Source: Brochothrix thermosphacta DSM 20171 = FSL F6-1036
Lineage (GTDB): Bacteria; Bacillota; Bacilli; Lactobacillales; Listeriaceae
Assembly: GCF_036884295.1 (NCBI RefSeq)
Contig: NZ_CP145608.1
Span: forward strand, 1,860,001-1,924,000
Length of the DNA stretch: 64,000 nt
Direction of reading: 5' to 3'
Shown: positions 13,694 to 61,307 of the stretch, one piece after another
Layout: every line of letters begins with the position of its first letter
Numbering within the stretch: position 1 is the first letter of the stretch
Translations under genes and position numbers: made by a program
The notes under the pieces: model-generated
What the model was told of the DNA's origin: nothing
Seen by the model: the letters and a program-made list of their open reading frames with translations, nothing else
The model's database searches: none

Positions 13694-13867
13694 AATGAGA
13701 ATAGCCCTCCAAGACTTCTTGACAATGTGTTATATCTTATACAACACACCAGCAGGTTCATTAACGAACGTCCCCCACTTCGGCGATAACCCCTTTCAAA
13801 TACTTTCAACTGTGCTCGTAAACACATCCAATACCCTACTGATAGCTCTCGCGCCTCTATCCACATT
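13694..13867 (-). promoter_or_regulatory. Lysine riboswitch (L-box) aptamer
   Basis: Minus-strand sequence has the L-box landmarks in order: GATAGAGGCGCGA, an AGTA element, GGGGTTATCGCCGAAG, and a closing GGAGGGCTATTC. P1 forms from 13857-13867 and 13694-13704 with 10 of 11 positions paired. The riboswitch binds lysine and favours the downstream terminator, lowering lysC transcription. Confidence 0.92.
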
Positions 13868-20187: not shown

Positions 20188-21174
20188 ATGAACGACATCC
20201 TCTCATTCCAAACGAACGCTCCCGTTGATCGTCAACTGGTGTGGCGCTCAATTTGTGAGACCTATATACAGCATTATCTCGAGCAGGATGATGATTTTTT
20301 AACATATTCCGATTATCTCGAACCATTTTCTGATGAAACTTTAAACTCTTTATTATCAACATTATTAGCCAGCTATTTTTCCGAGCATGCGATGGGTAAA
20401 ATTATCTATGAACAAATTGTCAGTGGTTTGAAAATCCCTGAATATCAGATAGAACGTGTTGCTCATTGGTTTGATGACAGTGTTATCAGCTTATTTGATG
20501 TGCTAGAACAAACACCTGAAAATAACTGGTTGATCTACAATCACCTTGATACAAACGAATACCTCGTTAATCATCGCACATTAAACGGTTTATCACTATA
20601 CAATGATAAACAATTGGACCAATTGTTTCATATGACACTTGTAAGAGAAAAAAATTACTATTATGCGCTTGAAAATACGATAACTTTAGGGACTGCGGAA
20701 GAACGTTTAATTTTTTCACTTTTAAATGCCGCACCACATACGGGATTAAACCCTGCTTTAACTAAGCAACAACAACTATTTTTCAATTTAACGTTTACAC
20801 TTGATTTCCATCTAGAAAATGATAGTGATGATATAAAAAGTTTTATTGATAATGGTTTGCTTAAATATGAAGCATTATTGTTATTAGAAAATGAATTTCA
20901 ACATTATTCATCTGATGAAGAACAACATGTTGCTCGCCATTTATTAGGAGAAGTTTTTCAACAAATGACGACATCGTCTGAGCTGAAAAATGCTAATATT
21001 AACTCTCTTGCAGCAGCCGTCACTTATTTACTACAACAAGAACCGTTCCTATTTGGTGCGCATGAAACACAAAACCAAGTCGCTCAACGCTACAACGTTT
21101 CAATTTCAACCATTCGCAAATGGTATCGCTTTTTGAAAAATGAATTGAGCCCCTTTATCGACTCTTATCAGTAA
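20188..21174 (+). CDS. Unknown protein with C-terminal helix-turn-helix, 328 aa
   Basis: I do not recognise the family. The protein is acidic, mostly helical and soluble, without signal peptide or membrane helix. The last 35 residues (NQVAQRYNVSISTIRKWYRF) read as a helix-turn-helix of the kind that recognises DNA, so a regulator with a large helical sensor domain is possible. The ATG at 20188 fits an AGAGG 8 nt upstream and the promoter ending at 20150; an ATG 25 codons earlier would precede the transcript start. Its 3' region is the repeat array at 21182-21625, followed by a terminator, so the repeats are probably in its mRNA. Confidence 0.7.
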   Translation: MNDILSFQTNAPVDRQLVWRSICETYIQHYLEQDDDFLTYSDYLEPFSDETLNSLLSTLLASYFSEHAMGKIIYEQIVSGLKIPEYQIERVAHWFDDSVISLFDVLEQTPENNWLIYNHLDTNEYLVNHRTLNGLSLYNDKQLDQLFHMTLVREKNYYYALENTITLGTAEERLIFSLLNAAPHTGLNPALTKQQQLFFNLTFTLDFHLENDSDDIKSFIDNGLLKYEALLLLENEFQHYSSDEEQHVARHLLGEVFQQMTTSSELKNANINSLAAAVTYLLQQEPFLFGAHETQNQVAQRYNVSISTIRKWYRFLKNELSPFIDSYQ

Positions 21175-21181
21175 CTACTAT

Positions 21182-21625
21182 CATCGTTGCAAATTTATTT
21201 GCTTACGAGGATAGTATGGGACGGAAATTTCGCCAGAAATTGAGTACCAATCCTTCGCTTTCATCGTTGCAAATTTATTTGCTTACGAGGATATTATGGG
21301 TGCTGACATTGTTGCGAAGATATGAGCTTACAAAGACAGTATGGGACGGAAATTTCATCAGAAATTGAGTACCAAACCTTATGTTGTTGTTTTCAGAGTA
21401 CCAATCCTTCGCTTTCATCGTTACGATTTTATTTGCTTACGAGGATAGTATGGGTGCTGACATTGTTGCGAATTTATTTGCTTACGAGGATAGTATGGGT
21501 GCTGACATTGTTGCGAAGATATGAGCTTACAAAGACAGTATGGGACGGAAATTTCGCCAGAAATTGAGTACCAAACCTTATGTTGTTGTTTTCAGAGTAC
21601 CAAACCTTTACTTTCATCGTTGCGA
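21182..21625 (+). repeat. Modular intergenic repeat array, seven units
   Basis: Units begin CATCGTTGC or CATTGTTGC at about 21182, 21262, 21307, 21416, 21461, 21506 and 21615. Short units are exactly 45 nt and end TATGGGTGCTGA. Long units (80 or 109 nt) carry GGGACGGAAATTTC, a 3-4 nt linker, GAAATTGAGTACC and, in two of them, a further TTCAGAGTACC module. Each full unit offers a GCAAAT/ATTTGC-type hairpin and long units add AATTTC/GAAATT. Related copies lie at 33318, 41265 and 42769. This is the main content of the 594-nt gap 21175-21768. Confidence 0.85.
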
Positions 21626-21652
21626 TTTTAGTTGCTTAATAATACCATTTCT

Positions 21653-21688
21653 TAAGGACATTCAGTTACATCACTGAGTGTCCTTTTT
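21653..21688 (+). terminator. Terminator after the repeat array
   Basis: A 12-bp stem AAGGACATTCAG/CTGAGTGTCCTT with one G.U pair and an 8-nt loop, then T residues. It would end the transcript of the 328-aa gene after the repeats. Confidence 0.85.
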
Positions 21689-21710
21689 TCGATACTATCT
21701 TTTTTTACAC

Positions 21711-32960: not shown

Positions 32961-33329
32961 ATGAACAGTTTATTAGCAATCACGCTACTACTATTCGCAG
33001 TCTTTATCTGTTGGGTAGTAATCAAATATTTACAGAGTGATAGTCGTCTGTTATTTGTTGCGTCTCAAAAGAAAGATTGGTTTGCCTATAAAACACGTGA
33101 TGATGAGATTGTTTTCACTTGGAAAGGTATTCTTTTTACAGCCCGTCATGCACCACCACAAATTCGCGAAAATACTGTGACTTCTTATTATTTTATTACC
33201 CCATTTAATTACGAGGAAATTGCTGGTTTTGAAGACAGTGATGTGCGTTTAATGCATGAATTGCTCGAAGAAACTTATCCTAACAGTCAATTTTCTTGGG
33301 CAGCCCCATTAGGATTACTAATATCGTAG
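32961..33329 (+). CDS. Unknown small membrane-anchored protein, 122 aa
   Basis: One N-terminal membrane helix (about residues 4-23) is followed by a roughly 95-residue soluble part, WFAYKTRDDEIVFTWKGILF... I do not recognise the family. AGAGGTGAAGAG precedes the ATG. The stop codon TAG (33327-33329) lies inside the conserved ATCGTAGC start of a repeat unit, so the last residues (LLIS) are encoded by the repeat and the original C-terminus may have been altered. Confidence 0.65.
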   Translation: MNSLLAITLLLFAVFICWVVIKYLQSDSRLLFVASQKKDWFAYKTRDDEIVFTWKGILFTARHAPPQIRENTVTSYYFITPFNYEEIAGFEDSDVRLMHELLEETYPNSQFSWAAPLGLLIS

Positions 33330-33530
33330 CAAAGTGATGAGCTTTATGAGGACAGTATGGGTGCTAATATCGTAGCGGATTTATTCGCTTTACGAGAGTA
33401 GTATGGGACGCAAATTTTCATAGAAAATTGAGTACCACTCCTCATGTTAGATGCTTTAAGAGTACCACTCCTTCTATTAATAAATTAAGAGTACCAATCC
33501 TTTTTTACAGCGCACAGTGCTAATATCGTA
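33318..33530 (+). repeat. Second copy of the modular intergenic repeat
   Basis: Units start CTAATATCGTA at 33318, 33364 and 33520 (46-nt spacing between the first two). The second is a long unit: GCGGAT/ATTCGC hairpin, AGTATGGGACG, AATTTTC-ata-GAAAATT hairpin, TTGAGTACC, then two further GAGTACCA modules at 33460 and 33490. Both hairpins differ from those at 21182 but keep pairing. This is the main content of the 425-nt gap 33330-33754. Confidence 0.8.
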
Positions 33531-37211: not shown

Positions 37212-38777
37212 TCAACGTTTTGATTCACTATTAGCAATTGTTAGTTGTCGAAAAGCAAATACAATTAGTACTAACCCTATTACAAATGTAATTGGTGTAC
37301 GACTTTCTTCCCCAGTATGCGGCAAGGCTGTTTTTTCTACCTTCGCAACATTATCTACTGTACCTGGATTGGCACTTGATTCTGTGCTCACAGCTATGTT
37401 GGAATCTGTACTTGTATCAGTACTCGGTTCGGTACTTGGTTCGGTACTTGGTTCTGTACTCGGCTCTGTATTTGGTTCGGTACTTGGATTGGTACTCGGT
37501 TCGGTACTTGGTTCGGTACTCGGCTCTGTACTTGGCTCGGTACTCGGTTCTGTACTCGGTTCGGTACTTGGTTCGGTACTCGGTTCGGTACTTGGTTCAG
37601 TACTTGGTTCGGTACTTGGTTCGGTACTTGGTTCGGTACTCGGTTCGGTACTTGGTTCGGTACTTGGTTCGGTACTCGGTTCGGTACTTGGTTCGGTACT
37701 TGGTTCGGTACTTGGTTCGGTACTTGGTTCTGTACTCGGATCGGTACTTGGTTCTGTACTCGGATCGGTACTCGGTTCTGTACTTGGTTCGGTACTTGGT
37801 TCGGTACTCGGATCGGTACTTGGTTCGGTACTCGGTTCTGTACTTGGTTCTGTACTTGGTTCTGTACTTGGTTCTGTACTCGGTTCTGTACTTGGTTCGG
37901 TACTTGGTTCGGTACTTGGTTCTGTACTCGGATCGGTACCTCCGCCACCTTCAGCACCGTATTTTTCTGAGTAAGATAGGATATTATGCGACTCTTCTAT
38001 GTCCGAACCGTCTACTTTAGCAAATATCTCTGCATTATTAGTGTATTGTGATTTAGATAAATCAGTTTTTGTTTTATATGTAATGTAAATTCGTTCATCG
38101 GTATCTCTCAATGGAATTTTAAAAGTCTTAGCACCAGTCCATTCAACCTTAACATCTTCATCTATCGTTGCTTCAGCTGTACTTGGACCATAAACGACAC
38201 GAACTGTATCACTATTTTTCGATCCTAAAAAAGTCAAACCATCGCCTAATGTATCAATTAGATACCCATCGTTTAAAACTTTCTTTTGTTCAAACGTATT
38301 AATGTATATCTGCCATGTAAGTGTATCTTTAGGATTTTGATTGCCTAAGTATCTCCCACTTTTCGTGAGCCATGCACCCGATCCAGATCCCACATCTGGT
38401 TTGTTAATAATTATATCTTTATTAACTAAACCATTTTTAATAGTAGCTGTTCCAAAAACAACACCTTCAGCTGTTTTTAATGCAACATTTTCCATTTCAA
38501 TATTATCATATCTAATTTCTGATGGGATTGTAAAAACTGCTTTATCCCCAGCAACAATGTTTGAGCCTTTTGGAATTGCAAATTCGTACGAAAGCACAAA
38601 TTTTTTATCACTTTTTATTTCAGTTAAGATTTCACCATTTTTAGCCGTTGTATCCGATTTGAAATTAACATCCGTTACGATACTGTCAGTGATGTTTTTT
38701 GCACTCACACTATAATTTGGATAACTAAAAGCAAATAGTACAATCCCTATCAAAACAAATATCCTTAGCTTAAACAT
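37212..38777 (-). CDS. LPXTG-anchored adhesin-like protein with TEPS repeats, 521 aa
   Basis: Signal peptide (about 26 residues, ending VSA), then a roughly 230-residue beta-rich ligand domain resembling the N-terminal folds of Cna/SdrG-type adhesins ([40 protein letters not shown]). After it come about 45 tandem Thr-Glu-Pro-Ser-type tetrapeptides as a wall-spanning stalk, with some E to D or N changes, then the sorting signal LPHTGEES, a hydrophobic helix and a basic tail. Sortase A should anchor it. Ligand unknown. AAAGGAAG precedes the ATG. The repeat makes long artefactual open frames on both strands. Confidence 0.88.
37405..37945 (-). repeat. 12-bp coding tandem repeat (TEPS array)
   Basis: About 45 copies of a 12-bp unit whose plus-strand form is GGTACTTGGTTC or GGTACTCGGTTC. 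Variants at the third and sixth codon positions keep the peptide period of four. Likely to vary in length between strains through slippage. Confidence 0.9.
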
Positions 38778-41039: not shown

Positions 41040-41264
41040 TATATCTCTTAGTTATAATTATGTTGAATTGTTTCCAATCACATTTATTTTAAAGTATCTT
41101 ATTTGCGATTTAAGCCGTTTTCTATTGAAAGCTTACTGTGCTACTTTATCTTTATGGCTTAAATTAAATCATAAAAAAACAACGGATCTCCTTTACTTTT
41201 TTATAGTTTTTAAAAGAGGGTTTTATCATTTTAAAATGGGCACTTCGAGAAATAATGGAATGTC
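41040..41264. other. A+T-rich intergenic stretch before the ISL3 remnants
   Basis: Part of the gap between the FIVAR gene (40980) and the first IS end (41451). It probably holds the FIVAR promoter (a TATAAT-like element near 41035 on the minus strand, -35 unclear). No gene is supported here. Confidence 0.4.
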
Positions 41265-41392
41265 ACTCAATTTCCCATGAATCTTTCCGTCCCATATTGC
41301 CTCTTTAAACAAATGAATTTGCAAAAATTTCAACAAAGATCCATCGTATACTACTCTCTTACTCTCTTAAATTCTCTAAGATATTAGCATTT
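41265..41392 (-). repeat. Degenerate copy of the modular repeat, reverse orientation
   Basis: Read on the minus strand: GCTAATATCTTAGAGAA near 41375-41390, GAGAGTAGTAT near 41348, TATGGGACGGAAA near 41284-41296 and AAATTGAGTGAC near 41262-41273. The order matches the units at 33364 and 21182, with decayed hairpins. Confidence 0.65.
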
Positions 41393-41450: not shown

Positions 41451-42759
41451 GGCTCTATAATTTATAGTGTTGGTGACGAAATATGTCGCTAACACTATTT
41501 TTACGCAAAAAAATAGAAACATATATAAATTTCCTTTAAAATAAAGTCGCTGAACCAATCCAAAGGAGGAATTATATATATCTCATACAACTCATTCTAT
41601 CGCATTTTCTACAGGAATTAAAGATAAAAATATAAAATTTCCTGAAAATTGGTGTTCTCGTCAAAAAGTGAAAGGTATTGAGAGTATTTGTTATTTCGGA
41701 ACGCTCACTTATAACCCAGGGCGCTGCTCTAATTGTGGCAAAACTTCTGCAAATTTTAACATCATCAAATACGGTGTTAAGACGTCGCGTATCACCTTAA
41801 ATAGAACCGATAATCATCAGACGTTTCTCTTCTTAAAAAAACAGCGCTATTTCTGTAAACACTGTCAAACCACATTTTCAGCACAGACTAACTTAGTCAA
41901 AGAACACTGTTTCATTTCAAAAAATGTGATTCAAAGTATTCTCGTGGAAGGACAATCCATCCTTTCTGAAAAAGATATTGCTAAACGCTTCCGCGTTTCA
42001 ACTACCACAGTATCTCGAGCATTGCACCAGTTGCAAGAACAGTTTAGACCTTCTTATCAGTCATTACCACAACATCTTTCAATGGATGAGTTCAAATCTG
42101 TGAAAAGTGCAGACAGTCAAATGAGTGTTATTTTTAGTGATTCAACAACCCATAAAATCATTGATATTTTACCCTCTCGCCGTTTAACTGTTCTTAAAAA
42201 TTACTTCTCATCTTATTCTAGAACTGCCAGAAACGCAGTTTAAACAGTGGTTGTCGATATGAATGCCCCTTATTATGTCCTGGTTAAAGAGTTATTCCCG
42301 AAAGCAAAATTAATTGTTGATCGCTTCCACTTATCACAACTGATTGTTCGCTCTCTGTCTCAAACTCGTATCCAACTCATGAATCGATTTAAAACAGCTT
42401 GTCCAGAAAATCAGAAAACATATCGTAAACTCAAGCGTTATTGGAAACTTGTACTTAAGAAAGAAACTGAACTAAGCGATACGTCGTATCGCTACACGCC
42501 TTTGTTCAAATGTATGATGACCTCTCGCGGTATTATTGATTATCTGACTAACATTGATGAGTCATTCAAGGCGATCTATCGTCTTGTACAGCAACTGACA
42601 GTTGCCTTTGATCATCGTAATTTTGAAGCATACAACACCCTTATTCACCAAAAACATAGCAGCGTGTCTCACTATTTGAAAAAGAGCCTAGGGACGTTAC
42701 GCAAATATTCACACGCAATCAATAATAGTTTCATCTATCGTTATTCAAACGGACACTAA
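41451..42759 (+). mobile_element. ISL3-family element remnant, right end missing
   Basis: The left terminal repeat starts GGCTCTATAATTTATAGTG at 41451 and matches the neighbouring element's left end. The coding part is homologous to the intact transposase but stops at SNGH, before the catalytic Glu, and no right terminal repeat follows. Sequence after 42759 is a copy of the modular repeat. Confidence 0.85.
41578..42759 (+). pseudogene. Inactivated ISL3-family transposase
   Basis: Relative of the transposase at 42975. Three lesions are visible. The start codon position is ATA (41578-41580) after AAGGAGGAATTATAT, where the homologue has ATG. An in-frame TAA at 42241-42243 replaces a lysine codon (NAV-stop-TVVVDMNAP against DSVKTVVVDMNAP). 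The C-terminal 35 or so residues with the third catalytic acidic residue are absent. The zinc-binding cysteines (RCSNCG, CKHC) and first two aspartates (SMDEF, VVDMN) remain. No active protein is expected. Confidence 0.9.
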
Positions 42760-42768
42760 GGATGAAAA

Positions 42769-42840
42769 GTACTCACTTTCTGATGAAACTTCCGTCCTAT
42801 ACTACTCTCGTACACTCATAACTTCGTTACGATATTAGCA
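42769..42840 (-). repeat. Copy of the modular repeat between the two IS elements
   Basis: On the minus strand: TGCTAATATCGTAACGAAG, then TACGAGAGTAGTATAGGACGG, AGTTTC-atca-GAAAGT, and GAGTAC. It abuts the truncated end of the first IS and stops 10 nt before the left end of the second. Confidence 0.75.
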
Positions 42841-42974
42841 ATAACAAAAGGCTCTATAATTTATGGTGTTGGTGAGTTTTCACTGATGCCTATTTTTCCG
42901 CAAAAAAATAGCGACATTTTCAAAATCCCTGTAAAATTAAGTCATCACAACAAATTTATAAGGGGGATTCGAAA

Positions 42975-44276
42975 ATGTCAGCTATCACTTCTAATAATAT
43001 CGCAAATTCCTCTGGAATTACAGATAAAAATATTTCTTTTTCAAAAACGTGGTGTGAAAAACAAGTAATTAAGGGATTTTCCAGCATTTGTTACTATGGA
43101 ACGCTCACTTATACACCTAGCAGGTGTTCAAATTGTGGTTTTACTAGTGAGACAGTCAAAATTATTAAATATGGCACGAAATTATCCCGCATTACGCTTA
43201 CTAAATCAGCGAATCTGCCTACCTATTTATTTTTGAAGAAACAACGCTTCTATTGTGAAGGTTGCCATACTACTTTCACCGCATCATCTTCACTAGTAAA
43301 AAGAAACTGCTTTATTTCAAAACGTGTGATACAAGCAATTTCGTCTGAAGGTCAATTTATTTCTTCTGAGAAGGATATTGCTTATAGACACAGTGTTTCT
43401 CCGACAACTGTCAATCGTGCAATACATCAATGGTCACACCAATTCAAACCCAGTTATGGGAGCCTCCCGGCTCACCTTTCAATGGATGAATTCAAATCAG
43501 TAAAAAGTGCAGACAGCCAAATGAGCTTTATTTTCACGGATGCGAGAAAACATGAAATTATGGATATCTTTCCTACTCGAAGATTGCATCATTTGAGGGA
43601 TTATTTTCTTAATTATTCCTACGAAGCGAGAGATTCTGTAAAAACTGTCGTGGTAGATATGAATGCGCCTTATACCTCGCTAATTAGAGACGTTTTTCCA
43701 AAGGCAATCGTGATTATTGATCGTTTTCATTTGGTTCAATTGGTGATGCGCTCGCTTAATCAAACACGTATCAAGCTCATGAATCGCTATAACACTTCAC
43801 GTCCAGAAGATAAAAAGGTTTATCGTAAGCTCAAATCTTATTGGAAATTATTACTTAAAAACAAAACAGAATTGAGTGATTCAGACTACCGCTACCAACG
43901 GTTATTTAAGGGACCTAAAAGTTCGATGGGGATTATCGATTATATTATGACACTTGATGTTGAATTTAAAGCAACCTATCAAGTAGCGCAAAACCTACTC
44001 GTTGCAGTGCAGCACAAAAATATTTCAGCGTATCAAACACTTGTTTTGAGTGAAAATAAATTGATTTCTCCACAAATGAAACGCAGTTTAAGAACATTGA
44101 AAAAATATTTACCTGAAATAGCGAATAGCTTTAAATACAATGATTCTAATGGTCATTTGGAAGGTATCAACAATAAAATTAAAATGATTAAACGTATTTC
44201 TTTTGGTTACCGTAATTTCACAAATTTTCGCAACCGAATTTTACTTGGCTTCAATAATAAACGTGTAGCGTCATGA
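42975..44276 (+). CDS. ISL3 family transposase, 433 aa
   Basis: An N-terminal zinc ribbon (RCSNCG and CEGCH) and helix-turn-helix (SEKDIAYRHSVSPTTVNRAI) precede a DDE catalytic domain. The likely acidic triad is Asp in LSMDEFKS, Asp in VVVDMNAPY, and Glu in SNGHLEGINN near the C-terminus. Length is normal for ISL3 (about 430). AAGGGGG lies 10 nt before the ATG. It appears complete and possibly active. It differs at many residues from the broken copy to the left, so the two are not a recent duplication. Confidence 0.92.
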   Translation: MSAITSNNIANSSGITDKNISFSKTWCEKQVIKGFSSICYYGTLTYTPSRCSNCGFTSETVKIIKYGTKLSRITLTKSANLPTYLFLKKQRFYCEGCHTTFTASSSLVKRNCFISKRVIQAISSEGQFISSEKDIAYRHSVSPTTVNRAIHQWSHQFKPSYGSLPAHLSMDEFKSVKSADSQMSFIFTDARKHEIMDIFPTRRLHHLRDYFLNYSYEARDSVKTVVVDMNAPYTSLIRDVFPKAIVIIDRFHLVQLVMRSLNQTRIKLMNRYNTSRPEDKKVYRKLKSYWKLLLKNKTELSDSDYRYQRLFKGPKSSMGIIDYIMTLDVEFKATYQVAQNLLVAVQHKNISAYQTLVLSENKLISPQMKRSLRTLKKYLPEIANSFKYNDSNGHLEGINNKIKMIKRISFGYRNFTNFRNRILLGFNNKRVAS

Positions 44277-59975: not shown

Positions 59976-61307
59976 TTATTTTTGCAATCTTCTAAGTATG
60001 AAATAACTACCCAGTATTATTAAGGTAAAACCTGCAATTGGATAAAGTAATAAATGATTACTCTCCTCACCGGTATGCGGTAATGAATTTGAATCAGGCG
60101 TTGTTCCTGTATCAGGCGTTGTGCTTGAATCAGACGTTTTGCTTGAATCAGACGTTGTGCTTGAATCAGACGTTGTGCTTGAATCAGACGTTGTGCTTGA
60201 ATCAGACGTTGTGCTTGAATCAGACGTTGTACTTGAATCAGACGTTGTGCTTGAATCAGACGTTGTGCTTGAGTCAGGCGTTGTGCTTGAATCAGACGTT
60301 GTGCTTGAGTCAGGCGTTGTATCAGACTCGGTTGTTGTGTCAGGCGGGTTAGAACCGTCTCCACCACCATCTCCACCATTTATTGGCGTATAACCATCAA
60401 ATATAACTTCAGATATTTCACTACCCGTTGCTTTTACCGTATTTGTATAGCGACTAGATTCACCGTTATCAGTCGCACGTGTATCATAAGCGATAATAGC
60501 AGTGTTTTTAAAACTACCTAAATCAACGCTGAATGTTGTATCTGATTGAACAGCAAATTGTTCAGGTAATATGAATTTTTCAATATTAAAGTCAACATCA
60601 CTTGTGTAATCCGCATATATTCCTCGGAAAGAATCTGGTATAAGTTTTTGATTTGGACCTACAATATCATTTAAAATAATATCTTTTAAGTCATAACGAG
60701 CATAATTCACACGTATAATCCAATGAATAAGTGTGGGGTCTGCTTTATCAATTTCACCTGTCTTCACTAAGGTTTCATTTGGATCCTGAACACCATCTGG
60801 TGTAATACCCACCGTTGTCTGTCCATATTGTCCTCAATCTAAAATAACACTTTCTTTTCCACCAATTAAATTACGATCCCATAGTACCCAAAATTTAGCA
60901 AAACCATGTAATGTATCATATTTAGTTGCTTGGTTATTAAATGTAATTGTAATAAATCCAGATGATTGAGCAACAAAAGCTGAACCAATTATTACACTCT
61001 CATCCGTACTACTTTTAATATCAAAAGTAATATCTTTAGCGACCACGAGCTCTTTTGGTAATTGTAACTTAAGCGTGTCACCTGCTACCAATTCTCCCTT
61101 TTTAAAGCTGAAATCATATTTTACCTGCATCGATTCATATTGTCCAAAATCAGATTTTGGATTGTTATTCCCATCTAACAATTCAATGTTAGTAATGTGT
61201 TCCTGTCCCTTTTCAGCTGCAAAAACCTGTGTTGTCAAATTACTCAGACTTACTAAAAAAAGGCTTAGTACGGCTACCACTTTAACTATTTTCCCCAACA
61301 TATACAC
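59976..61307 (-). pseudogene. LPXTG adhesin-like gene interrupted by an in-frame TGA
   Basis: The 5' part (157 codons, 60834-61307) encodes a signal peptide and an adhesin-type beta domain (FSFKKGELVAGDTLKLQLP) and ends at TGA (60834-60836). The same frame continues directly as GQYGQTTVGITPDG into 278 more codons with DSSTTS-type repeats, the sorting signal LPHTGEES, a membrane helix and a basic tail. A single base change (for example from TGG or CGA) explains the stop. The intact protein would be about 443 residues, related in layout to the LPXTG protein at 37212. GGGGG precedes the GTG start. Confidence 0.82.
60085..60335 (-). repeat. 18-bp coding tandem repeat (DSSTTS array)
   Basis: About 13 copies of an 18-bp unit (plus-strand form GTGCTTGAATCAGACGTT with small variants), coding a Ser/Thr/Asp-rich stalk. 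Some copies have GTC and GGC variants. Confidence 0.85.

What the first reader, a model, noticed from the sequence alone, without database searches (positions are those of the whole stretch)
21182..21625. Modular repeat array in the 3' region of an unknown gene
Seven head-to-tail units built from a 45-nt core and optional tails sit between the stop codon of the 328-aa HTH protein gene and its terminator. Cores form a GCAAAT-tt-ATTTGC hairpin; long units add AATTTC/GAAATT. Units differ by whole modules, which suggests spread by recombination or trans mobilisation. I know of no named family with this layout, but I could not search.
Basis: seen in the sequence. Interest (0 to 1): 0.65.

Follow-up and report, generated by a model that had tools for sequence, protein, structure and literature searches.

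The report
Repeat family from a ribosomal-gene tail
A meat-spoilage bacterium carries about 55 scattered arrays of small RNA-hairpin modules behind its genes, and these modules are relatives of an apparently undescribed two-hairpin structure that sits just behind the ribosomal protein gene rpsI in many Gram-positive bacteria.

Summary
The array is real. It has six full hairpin modules and a seventh partial one (A, about 45 nt), three B hairpins and two short C spacers, between the stop codon and terminator of the HTH gene. It is one of about 55 arrays (126 A modules) in the 2,564,037-bp genome, whose length equals that of Brochothrix thermosphacta DSM 20171. Three more loci of the family lie in the window. 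Arrays lie behind genes, sense to the upstream gene in 46 of 54 cases. The congener has no detected copy, and its orthologous gene has no array.

The A+B unit is homologous to a two-hairpin element directly after the rpsI (S9) stop codon in many Lactobacillales, Staphylococcaceae and one further family. Paired changes support the structure; Rfam has no match. Brochothrix's own rpsI lacks the unit, but a foreign-looking 114-nt rpsI tail with a unit lies at 834 kb, the kind of duplicate rpsI-targeting integrative elements leave.

Best reading: a BOX-like, non-autonomous repeat family descended from the rpsI 3' element and amplified in this lineage. The rpsI link and the dispersal are shown; the import route is inferred; the mobilising enzyme and the function are unknown.

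The parts
20188..21174 (+). 328-aa protein gene with HTH-like C-terminus, upstream of the array
   Evidence: ORF; no Pfam match; ortholog at 71% identity in the congener
21176..21216 (+). module A, copy 1 (perfect long hairpin)
   Evidence: R1 76 bits; fold -15.3 kcal/mol
21217..21254 (+). module B, copy 1 (second hairpin)
   Evidence: A+B match to R2, 97.7 bits; fold
21257..21300 (+). module A, copy 2
   Evidence: R1
21301..21341 (+). module A, copy 3
   Evidence: R1
21342..21379 (+). module B, copy 2
   Evidence: R2 84.6 bits
21380..21409 (+). module C, copy 1 (spacer ending in GAGTACCAATCC)
   Evidence: sequence; C spacing statistics
21411..21454 (+). module A, copy 4
   Evidence: R1
21455..21499 (+). 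module A, copy 5
   Evidence: R1
21500..21540 (+). module A, copy 6
   Evidence: R1
21541..21578 (+). module B, copy 3
   Evidence: R2 84.9 bits
21579..21607 (+). module C, copy 2
   Evidence: sequence
21608..21639 (+). degenerate seventh A module
   Evidence: sequence; inside the duplicated block D3
21653..21690 (+). intrinsic terminator behind the array
   Evidence: hairpin -18.5 kcal/mol followed by T6
33316..33505 (+). second array of the family (two A, one B, C repeats)
41256..41335 (-). single, diverged A+B unit beside ISL3-like genes
   Evidence: R2 58.2 bits
42762..42840 (-). single A+B unit next to a truncated ISL3-like transposase gene
   Evidence: R2 63.9 bits

Best explanation
The array is one of about 55 copies of a BOX-like, non-autonomous, modular interspersed repeat family specific, as far as tested, to the B. 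thermosphacta lineage. Its unit (hairpin A plus hairpin B) is related by descent to a conserved two-hairpin element that follows the rpsI stop codon in many Bacilli (shown: homology, position, paired structure; the direction rpsI-to-repeat is inferred from breadth). A relative with a foreign rpsI tail sits in this genome, so the unit probably arrived on an rpsI-targeting integrative element from an Enterococcaceae-like donor (inferred). Copies then spread to the 3' sides of genes, often just after a terminator's T-tract and mostly in sense orientation (position and orientation shown; the enzyme is unknown). Local arrays grow by tandem duplication of A, A-B or C blocks (shown for several arrays). 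The array here should be transcribed as a roughly 450-nt 3' UTR of the HTH gene (inferred from its place between stop codon and terminator). A dedicated regulatory role is not indicated.
For: 126 A modules in 55 arrays; 46 of 54 in sense with the upstream gene, 24 against 6 in codirectional gaps, 22 convergent against 2 divergent. Homologous unit directly behind rpsI in many genera, with E down to 1e-15 for module A and 1e-20 for A+B. Structure kept by changes on both sides in 17 of 27 pairs. Foreign rpsI 3' fragment plus unit at 834 kb, 84% identical to Enterococcaceae-like rpsI against 71% for the host's own. 68 of 72 Brochothrix units form one cluster, the rpsI-tail copy and three others fall with the rpsI type. 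Congener without copies or array. Tandem duplications.
Against: No mobilising enzyme, target duplication or exact element ends were identified. No second B. thermosphacta genome could be compared, so recent movement is not shown. The rpsI-tail copy is decayed and may not be the founder. The unit tree has few columns. The congener genome is only 85% complete.
Confidence: 0.6

Rival explanations
1. The hairpin unit is itself a mobile or attachment element whose preferred home is the rpsI 3' end (for example a folded site used by a tyrosine recombinase, or cargo at the ends of integrative elements). Its presence behind rpsI reflects repeated delivery rather than descent of an rpsI 3' UTR.
For: The rpsI 3' end is a hot spot of integrative elements (PMC4701971). 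Many copies lie at element ends with duplicated rpsI tails, seven in 36 kb in one genome. The structure with mismatch and bulge would also suit a folded single-stranded DNA site. G.U/A.C strand asymmetry does not separate RNA from DNA.
Against: In several lineages the unit follows an intact rpsI, with genes such as sortase, SIR2, GNAT or NERD next to it and no integrase seen there. Elements at rpsI in many genomes carry no unit. Where a host unit has been displaced, it lies at the far end of the element with the old rpsI tail, as expected of a host feature.
Confidence: 0.22
2. The arrays are selected 3' UTR regulators in B. thermosphacta: the hairpins protect mRNA 3' ends or bind a protein, so copies were kept behind many genes.
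For: Sense orientation and 3' placement; pairing largely kept in dispersed copies, 87.5% of cells.
Against: At least 14 of 55 arrays come right after a T-tract, where little transcript is expected. Copy number and module make-up vary widely. Some units sit beside broken IS genes. Avoidance of promoters and a 3' insertion preference explain the placement as well.
Confidence: 0.12
3. A purely local tandem repeat produced by replication slippage, without family or ancestry.
For: Tandem organisation and a 199-bp duplication.
Against: About 55 dispersed loci and homologs in other genera.
Confidence: 0.02

Closest known systems
BOX elements of Streptococcus pneumoniae (and BOX-type repeats of S. suis; PMC3049150)
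   Same: Short intergenic repeats made of modules, with a variable number of tandem inner modules, hairpin-forming, about a hundred copies per genome, mobiliser not proven.
   Different: Here the order is A(n)-B-C(n) with other modules; the unit has a traceable relative behind rpsI. Sequence homology to BOX was not tested.
EFAR of Enterococcus faecalis (Venditti et al. 2007, known to me from memory only; a further family, Efa-1, appears in PMC2267715)
   Same: As I recall: palindromic, variable assembly of sequence types, two stem-loops, insertion at stem-loops.
   Different: At most one unit per genome was found in the 15 genomes of one Enterococcaceae genus; it is not known whether E. faecalis was among them.
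REP elements with RAYT (Y1) transposases
   Same: Dispersed extragenic hairpins, behind genes.
   Different: No Y1 transposase in this genome; the unit is two hairpins with a long conserved linker.
rpsI-targeting integrative elements (ICEs and IMEs of streptococci, PMC4701971, PMC5090054)
   Same: Explain the duplicated rpsI tails that carry the unit.
   Different: The two-hairpin element behind rpsI is not mentioned in the passages of these papers that I read.

Membership tests
BOX-type interspersed repeats | Modular build with a variable number of tandem inner modules | tested here: met
   1-6 A modules and 0-25 C-like motifs per array
BOX-type interspersed repeats | Many intergenic copies in one genome | tested here: met
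   55 arrays
BOX-type interspersed repeats | Sequence homology to boxA, boxB and boxC | not tested
   No BOX sequence was fetched; weak matches in streptococcal genomes that I read were at rpsI
EFAR | Sequence homology to EFAR sequence types | not testable with these tools
   No EFAR sequence or named E. faecalis reference genome at hand; at most 1 copy per genome in 15 genomes of one Enterococcaceae genus
MITE | Terminal inverted repeats matching a resident transposase element, and target-site duplication | tested here: inconclusive
   Module A is itself palindromic, but arrays have no common right end and no duplication was recognised; ISL3-type ends near arrays do not resemble the unit
REP/RAYT | Y1 transposase encoded in the genome | tested here: not met
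   No PF01797 match
Reverse-transcribed (SINE-like) repeats | Reverse transcriptase in the genome | tested here: not met
   No PF00078 match; one lost or supplied in trans in the past is not excluded
Rfam RNA families | Match at the gathering score | tested here: not met
rpsI 3' two-hairpin element (this work) | A+B structure with conserved linker TATGGGACGGA..GAGTACCA | tested here: met
   Window 21176-21254 scores 97.7 bits with R2; the window units are among those used to build the model, but one search found the rpsI copies with R1, built from Brochothrix units only

The most novel reading that the evidence does not exclude
The two-hairpin element behind rpsI is an undescribed functional RNA of Bacilli (for example a protein-binding site in the rplM-rpsI mRNA), and B. 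thermosphacta has copied this piece of a ribosomal-protein mRNA to some 55 places in sense orientation, a bacterial parallel to repeats born from housekeeping RNAs.
Probability: 0.25. Interest if true: 0.8.

Novelty: new variant of a known kind. Interest (0 to 1): 0.62.

Why it matters
The origin of small bacterial repeats such as BOX is usually unknown. Here a repeat family can be traced to a conserved structure at a fixed place, the 3' end of rpsI, which is also a hot spot of integrative elements. That gives a testable route from host 3' region, through a mobile element, to a dispersed repeat. It also points to a structured element behind rpsI in Bacilli that is not in Rfam and deserves its own functional test.

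Tried and rejected
Rfam, including the E-value mode: nothing for the unit. Plasmids with the rpsI-type unit: none. Phage records: one Enterococcus wastewater contig with a unit after a short rpsI-tail fragment. Viral contigs: an exact rpsI-type string gave none, a looser one gave three unrelated coding matches and one Brochothrix-type array beside a prophage at rpsD. RAYT/REP and reverse transcription lack an enzyme in the genome. Strand test by G.U against A.C: 51 to 24 overall, but 29 to 24 without one column, so undecided. L13 leader mimicry: the Staphylococcus rplM leader does not resemble the unit by eye. Better outer-stem pairing in first modules of a run (25/78 against 3/29, p=0.026) is weak. 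ISL3 inverted repeats lie near arrays more often than expected by area (7 of 9 hits), probably shared intergenic sites. Literature searches found no description of the Brochothrix repeats or of the rpsI element.

Full report
WHAT IS THERE. Between the stop codon of a 328-aa gene (20188-21174) and a terminator (about 21653-21690) lies an array of three kinds of module, all on the + strand. Module A (about 45 nt) is a long hairpin: outer stem, A.G mismatch, TCGT/ACGA, T against TT, 5-bp stem, tetraloop, then TATGGG. Module B is a second hairpin, TGGGACGGA-AATTTC-loop-GAAATT-GAGTACCA. Module C is a spacer of about 29 nt that ends in GAGTACCAATCC. The array holds six full A modules and a degenerate seventh, three B and two C; 199 bp of it are a tandem duplication.

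HOW MANY AND WHERE. An 80-nt unit has 64 matches in the same genome; a covariance model of A (R1, from 53 units) gives 131. Without reverse-strand echoes and the weakest matches these are 126 A modules in 55 arrays of 1-6 A modules. The genome length, 2,564,037 bp, equals that of Brochothrix thermosphacta DSM 20171 (PMC11321008). Of 54 arrays with an assignable upstream gene, 46 are in sense with it; codirectional gaps show 24 sense against 6 antisense (p=0.0014), and convergent gaps outnumber divergent ones 22 to 2. Genes here are simple ORF calls, not an annotation. In 14 of 55 a run of five T lies within the 16 bases before the array, as after a terminator. C repeats follow mostly at 29, 27 or 23 nt. 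Other arrays also show tandem growth: an 85-bp A-B unit repeated at 260 kb, and a duplicated array with its terminator at 2153 kb.

RELATIVES. R1 matched 51 of 295 genomes of the order, usually once per genome. Reading these places showed the unit directly behind the rpsI (S9) stop codon...SQFSKR* TTGCTGGAGTCGTTGCGAATTTATTCGCTTACGAATACAGTATGGGACGGAGATTTC..GAAATCGAGTACCATTC, followed by a terminator. Named examples include Enterococcus larvae and E. mundtii; in E. aquimarinus the unit comes after a first terminator. With an A+B model (R2) the same arrangement appeared in Staphylococcaceae-like genomes and in one genome of another family (L145), in the former with different stem sequences and the same architecture. 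The family names behind the coded genomes are my reading of protein sequence and kinship labels. In L090, L097, L150, L145, L115 and L121 the unit follows rpsI and, where a family was found, the next gene is not an integrase (sortase, SIR2, NERD, GNAT, DUF4298).

STRUCTURE. On 38 units from Brochothrix and other genera, 17 of 27 pairs change on both sides, 90% of cells pair, no shuffle of 500 is as high, and sliding the partners drops pairing to 27-42%. RNAalifold alone predicts 19 pairs, a subset of these 27. Within Brochothrix A modules, 11 of 16 pairs show such changes. Strand asymmetry does not settle RNA against DNA.

HOW IT CAME HERE. The congener (85% complete) has no copy, and its ortholog of the HTH gene (71% identity) has no array. 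No match was found in the Listeria-like genomes listed. Brochothrix's own rpsI lacks the unit. But at 834043-834156 there is the last 114 nt of a foreign rpsI, 84% identical to Enterococcaceae-like rpsI and 71% to the host's own, with a unit behind it, next to a gene that reads like a type I restriction subunit. Such tails are what rpsI-targeting elements leave: G059 has an almost identical piece (residues 83-121) plus unit 18 kb from its intact rpsI. ICE and IME insertion in rpsI is known (PMC4701971; PMC5090054). The unit tree places 68 of 72 Brochothrix units in one cluster, while the rpsI-tail copy and three others (828, 1268 and 1501 kb) fall with the rpsI type. This fits import followed by one main expansion, but the tree has few columns and the founder is not proven.

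MECHANISM. Shown: dispersal, 3' sense placement, tandem growth, homology to the rpsI element. Inferred: import on an integrative element, and insertion at gene ends. Unknown: the enzyme. No Y1 transposase and no reverse transcriptase were found. ISL3-type ends lie near several arrays, and two window units adjoin ISL3-like genes (the ISL3 assignment is from my knowledge of the family), but the units do not resemble their ends. A prophage contig from another genome, probably Brochothrix, carries an array behind the same terminator (of what reads as rpsD) as in DSM 20171 but with different modules and other DNA beyond it; this suggests array turnover but is a single case. Two other genomes of the order have small arrays of their own with other stem sequences (G161: L109 and L110, one behind a tRNA-like sequence; G292: L119, four copies at 117 bp), so this structure seems prone to forming arrays.

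VERDICT. A new BOX-like repeat family in Brochothrix with an unexpected, well-supported relationship to an apparently undescribed element behind rpsI. The repeat kind is known; the ancestry and the rpsI element are the interesting parts.

Noticed in passing
L150, L153, L155, L145, L090, L091, L097, L104, L107, L121 (behind rpsI): Conserved two-hairpin element directly after the rpsI stop codon across Bacilli, not in Rfam; possibly a functional 3' UTR RNA in its own right.
   Followed up: partly
L111-L113 (G142:C4, 66-102 kb): Seven copies of the unit, most with rpsI tails, in about 36 kb on one strand: looks like tandem accretion of integrative elements at rpsI.
   Followed up: partly
L109, L110 (G161) and L118, L119 (G292): Small arrays of the same hairpin architecture with different stem sequences away from rpsI, one behind a tRNA-like sequence.
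   Followed up: partly
window 41668-44276: Two ISL3-like transposase genes, one split and truncated next to a repeat unit; ISL3-type ends lie near several arrays elsewhere in the genome.
   Followed up: partly
window 37212-38777 (-) and 59976-60812 (-): Surface-protein-like genes with long EPST-type (12-nt) and SDSSTT-type (18-nt) tandem repeats before what look like LPxTG sorting signals.
   Followed up: no
window 13694-13867 (-): Lysine riboswitch (Rfam RF00168, 97 bits).
   Followed up: no
L002, L015, L018, L028, L133 (upstream flanks of arrays): Several arrays share a second repeated flank of the type CAGGTCTAGTGATTTTTT...TATGAAATTAC just before module A.
   Followed up: partly
L161 (IMGVR_UViG_2838936620_000004): Prophage inserted at the 3' end of what reads as rpsD in another genome, probably Brochothrix; the array beside it differs in module types from DSM 20171.
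   Followed up: partly
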